A stretch of 10,133 nucleotides of DNA from an uncultured Candidatus Altimarinota bacterium (GTDB lineage: Bacteria > Patescibacteriota > Gracilibacteria > BD1-5 > UBA6164). Below, one piece after another: positions 631 through 9,351 of the stretch. The notes beneath the pieces are model-generated. The model saw nothing but the letters and a program-made list of their open reading frames with translations, did no database searches and was not told the DNA's origin. Position 1 is the first letter of the stretch. Each line of letters opens with the position of its first letter. Made by a program: the position numbers and the translations under genes. The stretch lies in the NCBI GenBank assembly GCA_937864995.1, contig CALMDL010000203.1, positions 1-10,133 on the forward strand, written 5' to 3'.

Positions 631-1107
631 TTATTTAATACTCACAATTTCATATTGATACGATCCAGACATTGCTTTAACATCAACTTTATCTCATTGT
701 TTTTTTCAAAGTAGAGCACTTCAAACAGGAGATTCATTTGAAATAGTAGGTAATTCTGCTAATATATCAGACTCAGTAGCTCAAACTATTTTAAATTTTT
801 CTACTTCTTTTGTTTCAATATTTTTAATTTCAACAATTGATCACATATTAATTCTATTTTTTTTATCAATTGTTTCATCAATTAATTCATAGTTTTTTAA
901 TTGTTCTTCTAAATCTAGAATTCTAAGTTCAACTTGAGCTTGTTCATTTCTAGCATCTTCATATTCTGAGTTTTCAGATAAATCTCAAAATGATATAGCT
1001 TCTTTTAATTTTGCTGCTATTTCTACCCTTTTAGTTGTTTTTAAAAAATCTAATTCTTCTTGAAGTTTAGATAACCCCTCTTTTGTTAAATATATTTTAT
1101 TTGACAT
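631..1107 (-). CDS. greA: Transcription elongation factor GreA, 158 aa
   Basis: GreA enters the RNA polymerase secondary channel and stimulates cleavage of backtracked RNA. The N-terminus [19 protein letters not shown] begins the coiled coil. Its tip is [16 protein letters not shown] (residues 41-56), with the two acidic residues D42 and E45 that correspond to the catalytic-tip pair of the family. The C-terminal FKBP-like domain contains ISNESPVGSALLGKKQGDKV. At 158 aa it has the usual family length. Gly41, next to the catalytic tip, is TGA. ATG at 1105-1107 follows the stop of the membrane protein gene by only 7 bases, so the two are almost certainly co-transcribed and perhaps translationally coupled. 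Location between nusG and a DUF212 gene is not a textbook arrangement. Confidence 0.96.
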
Positions 1108-1874: not shown

Positions 1875-2405
1875 TTAAACTTTTATATCTGAGTATTCTA
1901 GTTCAATTGGAGTATCTCTTCAAAGTAAATTAATATTAATTTTAACTGTTCATTTTTTATCATTTACTTCAGTTATAATTCATTCATTTCATTCAAATGC
2001 ACCTCTAATAATTAAAGCCATATCTCAAACTTGATATTTTGTTTCAAAAGTTTCAGATCTCTCAGAAACTTTTCATTTTAATTGTTCAAGTTCAGCTCCA
2101 GAAACTGGAACTGGAATATTTCAAGCTCATAAAAATCATGTAACATTTGGAGTATTTCTAACTATATACCAACTTTCATTTGTTACATTCATTTGAACTA
2201 AAATATAACCTGGTAATAAATTTTTTTGTTTTTTAACTTTTACTCATCCAGATCTAACAGAAACTACATCATGAGTAGGAACATATACATCTAATATATA
2301 TTCTTCTAATCAAAAACTTTCTCTTCTTTGGAAAAGTGATTTTTTTACATTTTCTTCTGTTCAAGAAATAACTTGAATAACATACCATTCTGGCTTTTTA
2401 AGCAT
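1875..2405 (-). CDS. nusG: Transcription termination/antitermination protein NusG, 176 aa
   Basis: NusG binds the RNA polymerase clamp, modulates pausing and termination, and links polymerase to Rho or ribosomal protein S10. The NGN domain (residues ~5-105) shows [18 protein letters not shown], then [10 protein letters not shown] and [18 protein letters not shown], the most conserved NusG block. The KOW domain follows: [16 protein letters not shown] then KKGTVKI. Several invariant glycines (VISG, VTGFLGAG, the KOW FEGNEG) are TGA, which is strong evidence for code 25. The length is normal. The ATG at 2403-2405 puts MLKKPEWYV at the N-terminus, as expected, and no Shine-Dalgarno is seen. It follows secE by 33 bases, the near-universal secE-nusG pair. 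The usual next genes rplK and rplA are absent and replaced by an unknown membrane protein and greA. Confidence 0.97.
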
Positions 2406-2438: not shown

Positions 2439-2621
2439 TTATGAAACCATATTTTTTAAATATAATAATCATTCAGAAAATAATGTAGAAGCCAAAAATA
2501 AATATATTCAAAATATAACTAAAACAGTTATAACTATAACAAAATATTTTGTTGTTTCTTCTCTTGTTGGCCATACAACATGCTTTAATTCTCTAACAGA
2601 ATCTTTTATAAATTGTAACAT
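2439..2621 (-). CDS. secE: Preprotein translocase subunit SecE, 60 aa
   Basis: This is a minimal single-helix SecE, the clamp subunit of the SecYEG protein-conducting channel in the inner membrane. The amphipathic surface helix FIKDSVRELKHVVWPTREET (residues 4-23) carries the conserved WPTREE signature, with Trp encoded by TGG. A single transmembrane helix (residues ~26-48, YFVIVITVLVIFGIYLFL) follows; its Gly is TGA. Sixty residues is normal for one-helix SecE proteins. This is the first gene of the operon. The start at 2619-2621 is preceded by an AT-rich leader holding a terminator-like hairpin. Confidence 0.95.
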
Positions 2622-3306: not shown

Positions 3307-4215
3307 TTATACTCTTCTAAATCTATATACAAATATAACTCATGATAAAACAAATGCTAATATAAAAATTAAAACTTGTTCTGGTCATGTTTTAGGTAAA
3401 TTTTTTGTATCTTCAGCTTCTGTTAAAACACTTGGATCAACATCTGCTGCATTTAAATCAACTCAACCTAATTCTCAATTATCTCCTTCAACTGCTTCTT
3501 CTTCAGTAGCTGCATTTAAATCTGGCATTGTTTCATCAATTTCTGATCAAACAAACGTAGCTTCAGAATCAACTCAAAATTCTATATTTTGATTTAAAAC
3601 ATCTCTTATGTTTAAAACAACTATTTTATATTCATTTCAAATTACAACTTCTTTATCTAATGTTAAAATCAAATTTTTTTTATTTGTTTTAGATACTTCA
3701 CTTTCCAAAACTTCTAAAATGTCATTTGTATCTTTAATATTTTCAATTCTAAATTCTCTTTCTTCTGCAGATAATTCATTTATTTCATTTGAAAAAGATA
3801 ATTCAACTTTATTTTTTCAAACCAAATTTGCATCTTCTAATACTAATGCTTTTGATTTTCAAGAATCACTTCATGGTGTAGTTACCATTATTTCATTTGA
3901 TTTATATGATTCATTTCATAATTCATCATATCAAACAAGTGTTAAATAATATGAAGTTCATGGTGTTAAATCAAAAAGCGTATATGAAGTACTATCAATA
4001 AAATCAGTATTTTTATCATAAGCTACATCTTTTGAAGAATCAACTCAATAATTTATTTTATAAATAAACACTTTATCAACTGCTTCCCAAGTAAAATCAA
4101 CACTAGTACTTTTTGTAGTTGCAGCTTTAAATTCAGCTGATACAGAAGAAATATTTAAAACTATAAAAAACGATATAAAAACCAAAGCAATTCTATTAAA
4201 AAATTTGTTAAACAT
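3307..4215 (-). CDS. Secreted fibronectin type III surface protein with LPKTG sorting signal, 302 aa
   Basis: The predicted order is a signal peptide (residues 1-27: basic start, hydrophobic core, SVSA cleavage site) and a fibronectin type III domain (~30-118; VDFTWEAVD, then DLTPGTSYYLTLVGYDELGN). Next comes a second beta-rich, Ig-like domain (~122-215; KNKVELSFSNEI, KNLILTLDKEVVIGNEYKI). An acidic linker follows with DLNAA twice. Then come LPKTGPE (from residue 273), a hydrophobic helix and a basic end RFRR. That tail is a classic sortase sorting signal: sortase cuts between Thr and Gly and links the protein to the envelope. The Gly of LPKTG is a TGA (3385-3387). The protein is probably an adhesin or surface-layer component. 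It is divergent from the pilin gene and stands alone. Confidence 0.88.
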
Positions 4216-4307
4216 AAACAAAAAATTAAAAAATATTTTGAACTTATTTTTTTATAAGTAAACTTACAAAGTAATTATAATTTTTTTTAAAAATTTACAA
4301 ATTTTTT
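4216..4307. promoter_or_regulatory. Divergent promoter region between the surface-protein and pilin genes
   Basis: attataat at 4274-4281 gives a TATAAT on both strands (minus 4274-4279, plus 4276-4281). On the minus strand TTGTAA (4295-4300) lies 15 bases upstream, a fair -35. No convincing -35 is seen for the plus strand. A weak AT-only inverted repeat acttat / ataagt (4242-4247 and 4254-4259) lies in the leader of the surface-protein gene. The region is nearly pure A+T, so all these calls are tentative. Confidence 0.35.
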
Positions 4308-4865
4308 ATGAATAAAAAAATAAATAATCTAGGTTTTACAATAGTAGAATTAGTTGTTTGAATAGCAATTACAGTAATAATTATAATGTGAAGCCTTAGT
4401 ATAAACTTTAAATCTATTTCTGATAGACAAAATTTAGAAATATTTACTAATAAAATAATTTGAGAAATTGAAAAAGTAAGGAACTATGCTCTTATATGAA
4501 AATGAATATGAGTAAATATAACTGTTCCTAGAACATGGAAAATAGAATTTAATAATTGATGGAATTGAACTTGATCATGAACACTGATTACTAGTTACTC
4601 AATGGATTGAAGTACTTGGACACAAGAAAATAAAATAAATGTAGATAAAAATATATCAATTCAAAATATACATTGTATAAGTGTATGATGAGCTGATGTA
4701 AACTTAACGACTACTCAAACTTGAACAATATTTTTTGAATGATGAAAATATAATTTATGATGAGATTGTTTAAGTTCATATTCAACTTTAAAAATTGATA
4801 CATTTAGTAGATGATATAATAGAACATTAGAGTTTGATGTTATAAACTGATTAATAAAAAAATAA
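4308..4865 (+). CDS. Type IV pilin-like protein / GspH-FimT-type pseudopilin, 185 aa
   Basis: A class III (prepilin) signal is clear: a short basic leader MNKKINNLG, cleavage after Gly9, then FTIVELVVGIAITVIIIMG with the invariant Glu at mature position 5 and a hydrophobic assembly helix. After the helix, KIIGEIEKVRNYALIGKG, a TIFFEGGKYN strand and a C-terminal RTLEFDVINGLIK recall the GspH/FimT minor pseudopilin pattern. Cys123 and Cys154 could form a disulfide. Glycine is abundant and 20 of its 21 codons are TGA, including three TGA-TGA pairs; the only GGT is at the cleavage site. Under the standard code this gene is invisible. The likely partner is PilB encoded at 5654-7003 on the other strand. 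The stop codon lies inside the terminator stem. Confidence 0.9.
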
Positions 4866-5653: not shown

Positions 5654-7003
5654 TTAAGTTCATAAAACAGATAATAATTCTTCAAGCGATGTTTCTCATA
5701 AAATAACTTTTAATAATCAATCATCTTTAATCGGAACCATTCAATCTCATATTGCTTGAATTTCAAGTTGTAGACGAGATGCATTACTTAAAATAAGTGT
5801 TTCTAGTTTATCTGTAAGTTCCAAAACTTCATATAATCAAACTCTTCAATTATATCAAGTATTATTACATTTAGGACATCAATTTTCACTTGATTTAAAT
5901 AAAAGTAATTCCTCTTTATTTTTTATATATTTTCATACTTTTCAAACAATATAATCTTTTATTTTATCACTTGCTTTATACTGTACTTTACAATGTGGAC
6001 AAAGTTTTCTTGCTAATCTTTGTGATATAATCATCCTCAAACTTGAAGTTATAAGAAGTGGATCTACTCATAAATTTACAAGTCTTTGAATTGTATGTGT
6101 TGCTGAGTTTGTATGTATAGTTGAAAAAACTATATGTCATGTAATACTTGCTTCTACTGCCAATTTTGCAGTTTCTTCATCTCTTATTTCTCAAACCATT
6201 ATGATATCTGGATCTTGTCTCAATAAACTTCTAAGTCATCTTGCAAATGTAAAATCAATTGCTGGATTTATTTGAGTATGATTTACTCATGGAATCCTAT
6301 ATTCAACTGGATCTTCAAGTGTAGAAATATTTTCTAATTTTGGATCAAATTGACTAAGTAGTGAAAAAAGTGTAGTTGATTTACCAGAACCTGTTGGTCA
6401 TACAGCCAATATCATACCATAATTATCTGCTAAATGTTTTTTTAATTTCACCATATTATAAGGCATAATACCTAAATCCTTTAATTCAGGTGGTTTATCA
6501 TCCTTTTTAAGAATTCTTATTACACATTTTTCTCAATAAATAGTTGGTATTACTGAAACTCTCATATCTAATTGTTTTCAACCAAATAATTTATATGCTA
6601 TTTTTCAATCTTGAGGTAATCTATGCTCATCAATTCTAAGATAAGACATAATTTTAATTCTAGCAATAATTGAATCTTTATGTTTTAATTCTAAAGTTTT
6701 ATAATTAACAAAATTTCAATCTATTCTAAACCTAATAGTTATTCAATTATCTCCTGGTTCAATATGTACATCTGATGCTCTTAGTTTTATTGCATTTAAA
6801 AACATATCATTAACAATTGATATAAGAAATCAATCTTCTTTTTTTTCTCAATAAGAATTTAAGTTTAAATCTGAGTTTACAGTAGTTTTTATAGTTTTAG
6901 ATTCATCTGAAGAAGAGCCAAATAAATCCTCTACTTTTACATTTTTTCAAGTATTAGGTTTATTTTTAACAACTCATTTTTTAAAAAGTTCTCAGATATC
7001 CAT
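5654..7003 (-). CDS. pilB: Type IV pilus assembly ATPase PilB / GspE family, 449 aa
   Basis: PilB is the hexameric cytoplasmic motor that powers pilus extension or type II-like assembly. After a polar ~50-residue start, the N2 domain shows [10 protein letters not shown] and LPQDGKIAY. The ATPase core follows: Walker [10 protein letters not shown] (residues 202-210, first Gly TGA), [11 protein letters not shown] (Asp box), Walker [17 protein letters not shown] (264-279) and the His box [13 protein letters not shown] zinc site is formed by C335/C338 (LCPHC) and C376/C379 (GCPKC), followed by NNTGYNGRVGLYEV, typical of PilB/GspE and absent from PilT. The usual N-terminal MshEN region is missing, so the protein is shorter than typical PilB (~560 aa). 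It is the likely partner of the pilin at 4308-4865. Confidence 0.95.
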
Positions 7004-7060: not shown

Positions 7061-7089
7061 AAAAACAAGCTTGACAAACTTGTTTTTTA
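7058..7089 (-). terminator. Intrinsic terminator of recQ
   Basis: On the minus strand acaag...cttgt arms (7079-7083 and 7065-7069) extend by T-G and T-A pairs to an 8-bp stem with a 3-base loop, then run into TTTTTTTG. The recQ stop codon overlaps the upstream foot. T also flanks the other side, but no plus-strand gene ends here. Confidence 0.75.
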
Positions 7090-9351
7090 TAAATCTTTTT
7101 TTTCTATCATTGCAATAGCCAATTTTATATCAAAATATGTTATATCCTTATTTCATAAATTTTCTATTTTTTCTTTTATAGGTTTAAGTTCAGAAACTAC
7201 TCAATTAAGTTCTTTATTAATGATATCTTTTACTATTTTTAACTTAGAAAAACTAGTATATTTCATAATATCTGAAAGTCATAATTTTCAATCTATATAG
7301 AGAGAAACAACATGACTTTCAATAGTTATAGATTTTAATTCTCTTAATTTTGATATATCATCTAAACTATTTCATAGTTTTAGTAATTTATATGTTTCTT
7401 CATAAGTATCTACTTTTTCCTTTTTTTCTTTAGGTTTTGATTCTTTTTTATAAAGAGATTTAGTTCAAAGTCTTATTTTAAGATATGTTTGAAGTTCTTC
7501 ATTATCATTTTTAAGTAAAAAATCTTTTGTAATAGCCAATCTACCAGTTTCAGTAATTCAAAGAAGTGGGAATTTACCATCACTTTTATATAGATACTCA
7601 AGAGACATAAGAGCTTCAATAACTGCCTGAATTAGTTCTGGAGTTAGATCACTAAGAGCTCCATAATTTTGATCATTATCCATATTCCACTCTAGAAGTT
7701 TTTTATCATTACTTCCCCGTAAAAATTTAACAAAAGTTTGTATTCAAAACTTTGTATCAAATTTTTTAACAGTCTCTAGGATAAGGCCAAAAACCGATAT
7801 TTTCACTATATCAACAATTTCTTGTTTTCAGAGATTTTTCTTTTCTATACAAAAATCACAACTTCCACAATTATCTCAGATTTTTTTTAAATCTTCCTCG
7901 TCAGCAAAATAATTTAAGATAAATTTTTTTCTACAACTTGGATAAAAAAGTAACTTTTTAATTTGTTCTAGTTTATAATAACTCTCTGCCTTTAAAGCTT
8001 CTTGATGAGCCCAATCTATTTTTATAGATGCAGGATTTTGTTTTGCTTGTAATAGCATTATTCATCTACCTCTAAAATCACTTGGAGTTTCAAAATCATC
8101 AAGTCACCTTTTGATTATATTATATTTTTCTAGTACCCTAATTATTGCTCAAACTTTTAAATCATTTACGATTCCAGATTCAGAGGCCATAACAAAATAT
8201 GTTTTTAAAATCTTAGCTCAAGCTCACTCTCAAGTAGAAAAATCTCTGTAAAGATAATTATAAAAATCAACAATTTCTTGTTTTGTTGGATATGAATTTT
8301 CTATAAAAAATTCTTGTATTTTAGTATCTGCAAATGATGCAATTACAACTCAATAACTATTTTTACCATCTCTTCATGCTCTACCTACTTCTTGATAATA
8401 ATTTTCTATACTTCAAGGTAAATTGTAGTGAATTACAAATCTGATATCACTTTTATCTATTCACATACCAAAGGCATTTGTAGCAACAATTACTTTATAA
8501 TTTGAATCCATAAAATTATTTTGTTCTATTTCTCTATTATCTCAAGTCATTTCTCAAGTATAAATTCAAGCAGAAACTCAATTTCAAATTAGATAATCAT
8601 ATACTTCTTTTACATTTTTTCTAGATGAACAATAGATGATTCAACTTCATGGTGTTTTTTCTAGTATCTCACTTACTTTCTCAAGTTTTTCTTCCTTTTT
8701 ACTTATTTCTCTAACTATTAAACTTATATTTTTTCTATCAAAACCAGTAGTAAAAATAGCTGGATTTACAAGTCATAATCTGAGAGTTATGTCTGCCCTA
8801 ACTTTTTGAGTTGCAGTTGCAGTAAGTGCTATAATTGGGAAATCATTATTTAATTTTAATCTTTCTAAAAAACCTTTAAGCTTCATATAACTTGGTCTAA
8901 AATCATGTCACCATTGACTTATACAATGAGCTTCATCTATAGCTACAAGAGATATTTTAACTCTTTCAATAATTCTTAAAAATTCATCACTATTTAGTCT
9001 TTCTGGAGCTATGTATAAAAACTTTATACTTCAATCATTTTTAGATATATCATTTAGTATTATTTGCTTATCATAGTTATCAATTGTAGAATTTATAAGT
9101 TCTGCTCTAAGTCACAAATTATTTAGTTTATCAACTTGATCTTTCATAAGAGAAATAAGTGGAGAAACAACTATAACAAGTCACTCTAAAACTACTCATG
9201 GTAATTGATAAGTAAGAGACTTTCAACCTCAAGTAGGCATAAAAACAAGTGTATCTTTTTTATTTAATACACTATCTATTATCTCTCTTTGCCCATCTCT
9301 AAAAGAACTTAAACCAAATTTTAATTGCAATATTTTTTCTAAATCGTTCAT
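7087..9351 (-). CDS. recQ: ATP-dependent DNA helicase RecQ, 754 aa
   Basis: RecQ is a 3'-5' DNA helicase of recombination and fork repair. The Q-motif region LKFGLSSFRDGQREII (10-25) is followed by Walker A MPTGGGKS (38-45), DEAHCISQWGHDFRPSY (139-155), LTATAT, then in the second RecA-like domain IIYCSS, VATNAFGMGIDK and EVGRAGRDGK. The RQC zinc site uses C473, C495, C498 and C501 (PSCRKK then DNCGSCDFC), followed by the winged helix with ALSDLTPELIQAVIEALMSLEYL and ITETGRLAI. The C-terminal ~110 residues (TYEETYKLLKLGNSLDDISK and ESHVVSLYI) look like an HTH_40 helicase C-terminal domain rather than HRDC. The adjacent TGG (W147) and TGA (G148) in QWGHDFRP fix the code. The start gives a standard N-terminus. 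Confidence 0.97.

What the first reader, a model, noticed from the sequence alone, without database searches (positions are those of the whole stretch)
8908..8913. Adjacent TGG (Trp) and TGA (Gly) in an invariant RecQ motif fix the genetic code as UGA=Gly
The RecQ motif QWGHDFRP is nearly invariant. Here W147 is TGG and G148 is TGA. In-frame TGA also falls on PilB Walker A Gly202 (6398-6400), PilB Walker B-region Gly271, GreA Gly41, SecE and several NusG KOW glycines. This excludes UGA=Trp and places the DNA in Absconditabacteria or Gracilibacteria. Every gene call here depends on it.
Basis: partly seen in the sequence, partly recalled or inferred. Interest (0 to 1): 0.7.

Follow-up and report, generated by a model that had tools for sequence, protein, structure and literature searches.

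The report
UGA read as glycine in Gracilibacteria
This bacterial DNA uses a known non-standard genetic code in which the usual stop signal UGA means the amino acid glycine, and it probably also reads a second codon, CGG, as tryptophan instead of arginine.

Summary
Confirmed. At 8908-8913 (minus strand) RecQ codons 147-148 read TGG-TGA in QWGHDFRP. Thirteen ORFs hold 149 in-frame TGA and 38 GGN codons. Against 76 outside PilB loci, TGA columns are Gly in 67% of 1658 cells, Trp in none. In 13 RecQ relatives W147 is always TGG, G148 TGA or GGN. Among the window's genome and 20 relatives, RF1 passes its cut-off in 19, RF2 in none, and tRNA(UCA) with glycine bases occurs in 18; the window's own fragmented assembly shows none of these. 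Named relatives are Gracilibacteria; UGA=Gly there is in print.

Table 25 is probably incomplete here. In the window's family CGG sits at Trp columns (17 of 24 site groups, Arg 0); in sister families at Arg (20 of 58, Trp 0). A tRNA(CCG) with Trp-type end bases occurs in the family; CGA stays Arg. Against: one same-genus CGG stands at a strictly conserved Arg. PMC8629427 already mentions CGG=Trp for some Gracilibacteria. The window's one CGG is RecQ codon 545 (7717-7719).

The parts
8908..8910 (-). TGA codon 148 of RecQ, read as Gly (QWGHDFRP)
   Evidence: TGA in 8 and GGN in 5 of 13 relatives; Gly in 5 of 5 PDB alignments shown
8911..8913 (-). TGG codon 147 of RecQ, Trp
   Evidence: TGG in 13 of 13 relatives; Trp in 120 of 120 listed database relatives
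7087..9351 (-). RecQ helicase ORF, 754 aa, 35 in-frame TGA
   Evidence: TIGR00614 431.7 bits, cut-off 219.8 (the narrower TIGR01389 is below its cut-off); Pfam domains
7717..7719 (-). the only CGG codon among the 13 window ORFs (RecQ 545); probably Trp rather than Arg
5654..7003 (-). PilB/GspE-type ATPase ORF, 449 aa, 27 in-frame TGA
   Evidence: PF00437 400.4 bits, cut-off 24.9
6398..6400 (-). TGA codon 202 of PilB, Walker A Gly
   Evidence: Gly in 76 of 76 outside relatives
1875..2405 (-). NusG ORF, 176 aa, 12 in-frame TGA
   Evidence: TIGR00922 149.2 bits, cut-off 135.7; alignments
631..1107 (-). GreA ORF, 158 aa, 6 in-frame TGA
   Evidence: TIGR01462 164.4 bits, cut-off 139; alignments
2439..2621 (-). 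SecE ORF with 2 in-frame TGA
   Evidence: TIGR00964 56 bits, cut-off 27.55 (scanned as 2439-2681)

Best explanation
The window is chromosome of a Gracilibacteria-type bacterium whose translation reads UGA as glycine. Release factor 2 has been lost, so nothing ends translation at UGA (shown in relatives). A dedicated tRNA with anticodon UCA and glycine identity bases reads UGA (its presence is shown in relatives; charging is inferred). UGG stays Trp, and UAA, more rarely UAG, is stop. UGA has become the main glycine codon (149 of 187 in the window). A second change is likely in the same family: CGG is read as Trp by a tRNA(CCG) with Trp-type end bases, while CGA remains Arg (about 0.75 for the window's organism).
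For: UGA: columns. RF1 over cut-off in 19 of 21 genomes and RF2 in 0 of 21, with every RF2-model hit lying on the RF1 locus. tRNA(UCA) in 18 of 21, all 18 with G1:C72, C2:G71, G3:C70, U73, the criteria of PMC8629427. Stops in sampled ORFs of the own genome: TAA 105, TAG 12 of 117. CGG: family f1 17 of 24 site groups Trp, 0 Arg; sister families 0 of 58 Trp, 20 Arg (Fisher p 2e-12). tRNA(CCG) with A1:U72 and G73 in 17 of 17 copies that ARAGORN calls. A TrmB CGG of G006 aligns to the Trp of 'DPW' in 4 of 4 PDB alignments shown.
Against: In the window's own assembly no tRNA(UCA), tRNA(CCG), tRNA-Trp, prfA or prfB was found. Neither release factor was found in G007, and tRNA(UCA) not in G010 or G019. 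A few TGA site groups have Trp as majority: 7 of 3147 in family f1 and 2 of 594 in the sister families. For CGG: in same-genus genome G003 a CGG sits at a column that is Arg in 120 of 120 listed database relatives and 4 of 4 PDB alignments shown. RecQ 545 itself is a variable column. The tRNA(CCG) D-loop may carry A20, an arginine identity base. Nine of the 21 f1 genomes listed in the class-wide draw, the window's own among them, show no such tRNA by BLAST.
Confidence: 0.95

Rival explanations
1. UGA is read as tryptophan (table 4, as in Mycoplasma), as many public protein records of this group imply.
For: 78 of 120 RecQ, 51 of 120 UGPase and 24 of 120 NusG listed relatives carry Trp at more of the UGA columns than Gly; I read this as the translation table those sources used.
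Against: Trp in 0 of 1658 cells at PilB TGA columns; Trp in 0 of 166 non-TGA ortholog cells at RecQ TGA columns; tRNA(UCA) has the glycine end bases.
Confidence: 0.01
2. UGA=Gly is the only change, so table 25 is complete and CGG is still Arg in the window's organism.
For: UGPase codon 252 of G003 is CGG at an invariant Arg column. Another G003 site has CGG opposite Lys in three genomes, Ala in one and Arg in one. CGG is Arg in sister families.
Against: In genus g1, 7 of 13 CGG site groups have Trp as majority and 0 have Arg; within the genus CGG is opposite TGG 4 times, AAA twice, CAA once, an Arg codon never, CGG itself 61 times. CGG outnumbers CGA 14 to 1 in G000 and 17 to 4 in G003 although AGA far outnumbers AGG. 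tRNA(CCG) of the genus has A1:U72 and G73.
Confidence: 0.2
3. CGG is unassigned or ambiguous in the genus, decoded weakly and tolerated only at rare sites.
For: CGG is very rare, 14 in 54,067 codons of sampled G000, and its sites are a mixture of Trp, other aromatic and unrelated columns.
Against: RecQ 545 keeps CGG in 6 of 6 genus members and RF1 269 in the 5 of 6 whose RF1 was found. A whole tRNA(CCG) is kept in 4 of 6, and a fifth copy is cut by a contig end.
Confidence: 0.1

Closest known systems
UGA=Gly code of Absconditabacteria (SR1) and Gracilibacteria (NCBI table 25)
   Same: UGA is glycine, RF2 not found, tRNA-Gly(UCA) with G1:C72, C2:G71, G3:C70, U73, low G+C.
   Different: Nothing in the UGA part. 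The probable CGG change is not in table 25.
CGA and CGG = Trp in Absconditabacteria (PMC8629427)
   Same: CGG read as Trp, with a tRNA(CCG) of Trp type.
   Different: Here CGA stays Arg in the family (Trp 0 in every genome's CGA cells; few CGA sites in the window's own genus). No Absconditabacteria genome was identified or compared by name. BLAST with the family's tRNA(CCG) gave only one 19-base piece among the 171 class genomes outside the 21 f1 genomes listed.
Gracilibacteria with CGG predicted as Trp (one sentence in PMC8629427, section 11)
   Same: Probably the same phenomenon: the paper says some Gracilibacteria read CGG as Trp and others as Arg.
   Different: Adds here a family boundary within one order, the tRNA end bases and odd loops, and within-genus TGG/CGG exchanges. 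Its figure supplement was not seen and may already show some of this.

Membership tests
UGA=Gly code (table 25) | UGA codons at conserved Gly positions, not Trp | tested here: met
   Trp 0 of 166 and 0 of 1658 cells
UGA=Gly code (table 25) | UGG still Trp | tested here: met
   RecQ W147 TGG in 13 of 13 relatives; over 3 TGG columns 35 of 38 cells TGG, the rest 2 CGG and 1 GCA
UGA=Gly code (table 25) | no release factor 2 | tested here: met
   0 of 21 genomes over cut-off, against 10 of 14 controls; in the own genome RF1 was not found either, so its own lack of RF2 is weak
UGA=Gly code (table 25) | tRNA-Gly(UCA) gene | tested here: inconclusive
   in 18 of 21 genomes, but not found in the window's own assembly
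UGA=Gly code (table 25) | glycine found in protein at UGA | not testable with these tools
   needs proteomics
Gracilibacteria | closest named relatives are Gracilibacteria | tested here: met
   among the 120 listed relatives each of RecQ and NusG, records that name an organism say Candidatus Gracilibacteria, except P0090 'uncultured bacterium (gcode 4)'; no tree was built
Absconditabacteria CGA+CGG=Trp code | CGA read as Trp | tested here: not met
   in family f1 CGA is Arg in 36 of 80 site groups and Trp in 0; in genus g1 only 5 groups, Arg 2, Trp 0
CGG=Trp reassignment | CGG at Trp columns, not Arg | tested here: met
   family f1 17 of 24 Trp, 0 Arg; one contrary Arg column in G003 outside that count
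CGG=Trp reassignment | tRNA(CCG) with G73 and no A20 | tested here: inconclusive
   A1:U72 and G73 in 17 of 17 called copies; the D-loop lacks the usual GG, so N20 cannot be placed and may be A; not found in the window's own assembly

The most novel reading that the evidence does not exclude
The window's family runs a code with two changes, UGA=Gly and CGG=Trp, and splits the CGR pair (CGA=Arg, CGG=Trp) although no tRNA(UCG) was detected. CGG is read by an unusual tRNA-Trp(CCG) whose D-loop lacks GG and whose T-loop is UGCAAUU. This tRNA has no full-length BLAST match elsewhere in the sampled class, so the change may have arisen separately from that of Absconditabacteria.
Probability: 0.4. Interest if true: 0.55.

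Novelty: new member of a known kind. Interest (0 to 1): 0.3.

Why it matters
The UGA part is settled knowledge, but it has a practical edge: many public protein records of this group (78 of 120 listed RecQ relatives) carry Trp where Gly belongs. If CGG=Trp holds for the family, table 25 also mistranslates these genomes. The order would then hold close relatives on both sides of a sense-codon change, a good place to study how a codon changes meaning.

Tried and rejected
UGA=Trp was rejected by column counts. My first thought that the window's CGG (RecQ 545) shows CGG=Arg, because Arg stands there in the top PDB matches, was dropped: the column is variable in the family.

A DNA-pattern scan for tRNA(CCG) gave no match in 12 of 13 f1 genomes and one in G005 that ARAGORN does not call a tRNA(CCG). 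That negative is void, because the pattern assumed a normal T-loop and the real gene has TGCAATT. The Rfam tRNA search at E <= 0.001 also missed the tRNA(CCG) of G003, so tRNA absences in this report are not firm.

G001 stretches hold CGA and CGG at raised rates (126 and 175 of 91,674 codons), unlike the rest of the genus. I suspect foreign contigs. They were not removed, but few of these codons had orthologs (4 CGA and 11 CGG sites).

In one search my script printed empty sequences for minus-strand hits; one search repeats the work with ARAGORN. The alignment of the odd tRNA-like gene mixed strands and was not used.

Papers. PMC8629427: passages and section 11; its supplements were not seen. 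PMC13092985: passages. Campbell 2013 and Rinke 2013: seen only as citations in those passages. Other papers were seen only in the listings, which are also my only novelty searches; the library lacks most subscription papers and holds no preprints. The labels K-channel, TraD-like, CHAP, Obg, SerRS, pilin-like and sortase signal are my own reading. Wobble rules and identity elements are recalled except where the paper's passages give them.

Full report
WHAT IS THERE. The window is 10,133 bases of 23% G+C, contig C203 of an unnamed 1.2 Mb genome in 355 contigs, 85% complete. On the minus strand of 8908-8913 stand TGG and TGA, codons 147 and 148 of a 754-aa RecQ ORF, in the motif SQWGHDFRP. The 13 ORFs that I took as genes, of 23 listed, hold 149 in-frame TGA, 38 GGN and 15 TGG codons, and each ends in TAA.

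UGA IS GLYCINE. With TGA masked, PilB was compared with 76 loci from genome records (80 kept, of more found; the 4 titled Gracilibacteria were left out). The 27 TGA columns gave 1658 cells: 67% Gly, 11% Ala, no Trp. Six columns are Gly in 76 of 76. RecQ was found at E <= 1e-80 in 14 of 21 genomes, the window's own and 13 relatives. In those 13 the 35 TGA columns gave 281 TGA and 91 GGN codons; of the 166 cells that are not TGA, 91 are Gly and none Trp. W147 is TGG in all 13; G148 is TGA in 8 and GGN in 5. PDB alignments give Gly at RecQ 148 in 5 of 5 shown and at GreA 41 in 3 of 3. In NusG, G142 is Gly in 3 of 3 shown and G127 in 2 of 3, while G139 and G152 are not. Over the sampled genomes, TGA site groups have Gly as majority in 1382 of 3147 (family f1) and 288 of 594 (sister families), and Trp in 7 and 2 (groups count only orthologs that are not TGA).

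THE MACHINERY. In the window's genome and 20 relatives, RF1 is over its cut-off in 19 of 21 and RF2 in 0 of 21; the 19 RF2-model hits fall on the RF1 loci. RF1 genes themselves hold up to 17 TGA. A 79-nt tRNA(UCA) was found in 18 of 21 (E <= 1e-15). All 18 have G1:C72, C2:G71, G3:C70 and U73, the glycine criteria given in PMC8629427. ARAGORN labels it tRNA-SeC. tRNA-Trp(CCA) is separate, with A1:U72 and G73 in the 3 genomes looked at. In the window's own assembly 20 tRNA hits were found, but not tRNA(UCA), tRNA-Trp, RF1 or RF2, so for it the machinery is inferred from relatives.

WHO IT IS. Among the best 120 listed relatives each of RecQ and NusG, records that name an organism say Candidatus Gracilibacteria, except one 'uncultured bacterium (gcode 4)' (names are cut in the listing). 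The nearest RecQ and NusG (98% and 97%) lie on an 85,035-base contig, the length of G003 contig C7. Absconditabacteria is thus unlikely, though no tree was built. That UGA is Gly in both groups is in print (PMC8629427, passages). This part is ordinary.

A SECOND CHANGE. PMC8629427 reports CGA and CGG as Trp in Absconditabacteria and adds in one sentence that some Gracilibacteria are predicted to read CGG as Trp and others as Arg (section 11). I tested this near the window. ORFs of 100 codons or more from held stretches and loci of 21 genomes (8 of them sampled by 81 to 390 kb, 13 only by one or two loci) were compared with TGA, CGA and CGG masked. Sites were then grouped so that one inherited site counts once. 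In family f1 (the window's), 24 CGG groups have an informative ortholog: Trp is the majority in 17, Arg in 0; the other 7 are Thr, Leu, Lys, Ile, Gln, Tyr and a tie. In sister families f2 and f3, 58 CGG groups: Arg 20, Lys 13, Trp 0. Controls in f1: CGA Arg 36 of 80, Trp 0; CGT Arg 201 of 377, Trp 1; AGG Arg 257 of 448, Trp 1. In the window's genus alone: 13 CGG groups, Trp 7, Arg 0. Within the genus CGG stands opposite CGG 61 times, TGG 4 times, AAA twice (one site), CAA once and an Arg codon never. An outside check: a CGG of G006 TrmB aligns to the Trp of 'DPW' in 4 of 4 PDB alignments shown.

CODON USAGE. In the window's genome CGG outnumbers CGA 14 to 1 although AGA outnumbers AGG 1287 to 82; in G003 the figures are 17 to 4 and 2673 to 252. 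This argument holds for the genus only: G006 and G011, also in f1, have more CGA than CGG (215 to 31 and 36 to 7).

ITS tRNA. A tRNA(CCG) is found by BLAST in 11 of 13 f1 genomes (not in G000 or G007; the G002 copy is cut by a contig end) and in 0 of 8 f2 and f3 genomes at E <= 0.01. In a class-wide draw of 192 genomes it is found in 12 of the 21 f1 genomes listed, and outside them only as one 19-base piece at whose place ARAGORN calls no tRNA(CCG). The 17 copies called by ARAGORN all have A1:U72 and G73, as tRNA-Trp(CCA) has. The 10 Arg tRNAs printed for comparison have G1 and A73, including the tRNA(CCG) of f2 genomes G013 and G020. By overall identity the tRNA(CCG) is no nearer to tRNA-Trp than to tRNA-Arg (51-61% and 47-62%). 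Its D-loop lacks the usual GG and its T-loop is TGCAATT. PMC8629427 asks for G73 without A20 for Trp; N20 cannot be placed here and may be A.

AGAINST. In G003, codon 252 of a UGPase is CGG at a column that is Arg in 120 of 120 listed database relatives and 4 of 4 PDB alignments shown (databases translate CGG as Arg, so some of the 120 may be CGG). This site had no ortholog in the sampled DNA and so is not among the 24 groups. Another G003 site (L227) has CGG opposite Lys in three genomes, Ala in one and Arg in one. The window's own CGG, RecQ 545, is a variable column: elsewhere in f1 Trp, Tyr, Ala, Val and Thr, and TGA in G018. Nine f1 genomes of the draw show no such tRNA. I put CGG=Trp in the window's organism at about 0.75.

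OPEN. CGA is Arg in G006 and G011, but ARAGORN found no tRNA(UCG) among 35 tRNAs of G011, or among 29 of G006, whose set is visibly incomplete. Since the Rfam search missed one real tRNA(CCG), this absence is not firm.

CONSEQUENCE. Many public records look mistranslated: 78 of 120 RecQ, 51 of 120 UGPase and 24 of 120 NusG listed relatives have Trp at more UGA columns than Gly. RecQ 148 itself is Trp in 62 of 120.

Noticed in passing
database relatives P0001-P0360: Many public protein records of this group look translated with UGA=Trp: 78 of 120 RecQ, 51 of 120 UGPase, 24 of 120 NusG listed relatives have Trp at more UGA columns than Gly.
   Followed up: partly
L077:1498-1600 (minus), L186, L187: A tRNA-like gene about 103 nt long with roughly 30 extra bases in the anticodon arm occurs in three of six genus members (G001, G003, G005; 88-89% identity to the G003 copy). 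ARAGORN calls it only when an intron is allowed.
   Followed up: partly
window 3307-4221 (minus): A 304-aa protein with a fibronectin type III domain ends in LPKTG, a hydrophobic stretch and RFRR, like a sortase sorting signal (motif recalled).
   Followed up: no
window 4308-4865 (plus): A 185-aa ORF starting with a type IV pilin-like segment (GFTIVELVV) holds 20 in-frame TGA, the highest density among the 13 ORFs; no NCBIfam or Pfam match at E <= 0.001.
   Followed up: no
G006, G011 (L246-L271): CGA is an arginine codon in these genomes, yet no tRNA(UCG) was seen.
   Followed up: partly
G000-G020: UGA share of glycine codons in the held ORFs runs from about 2.5% (G015, G+C 0.54) to about 84% (G007, G+C 0.23) within one order; both of these samples are only a few genes.
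   Followed up: no
G001 stretches L383-L402: CGA and CGG counts are far above those of G000 and G003 of the same genus, perhaps from foreign contigs in that assembly.
   Followed up: no
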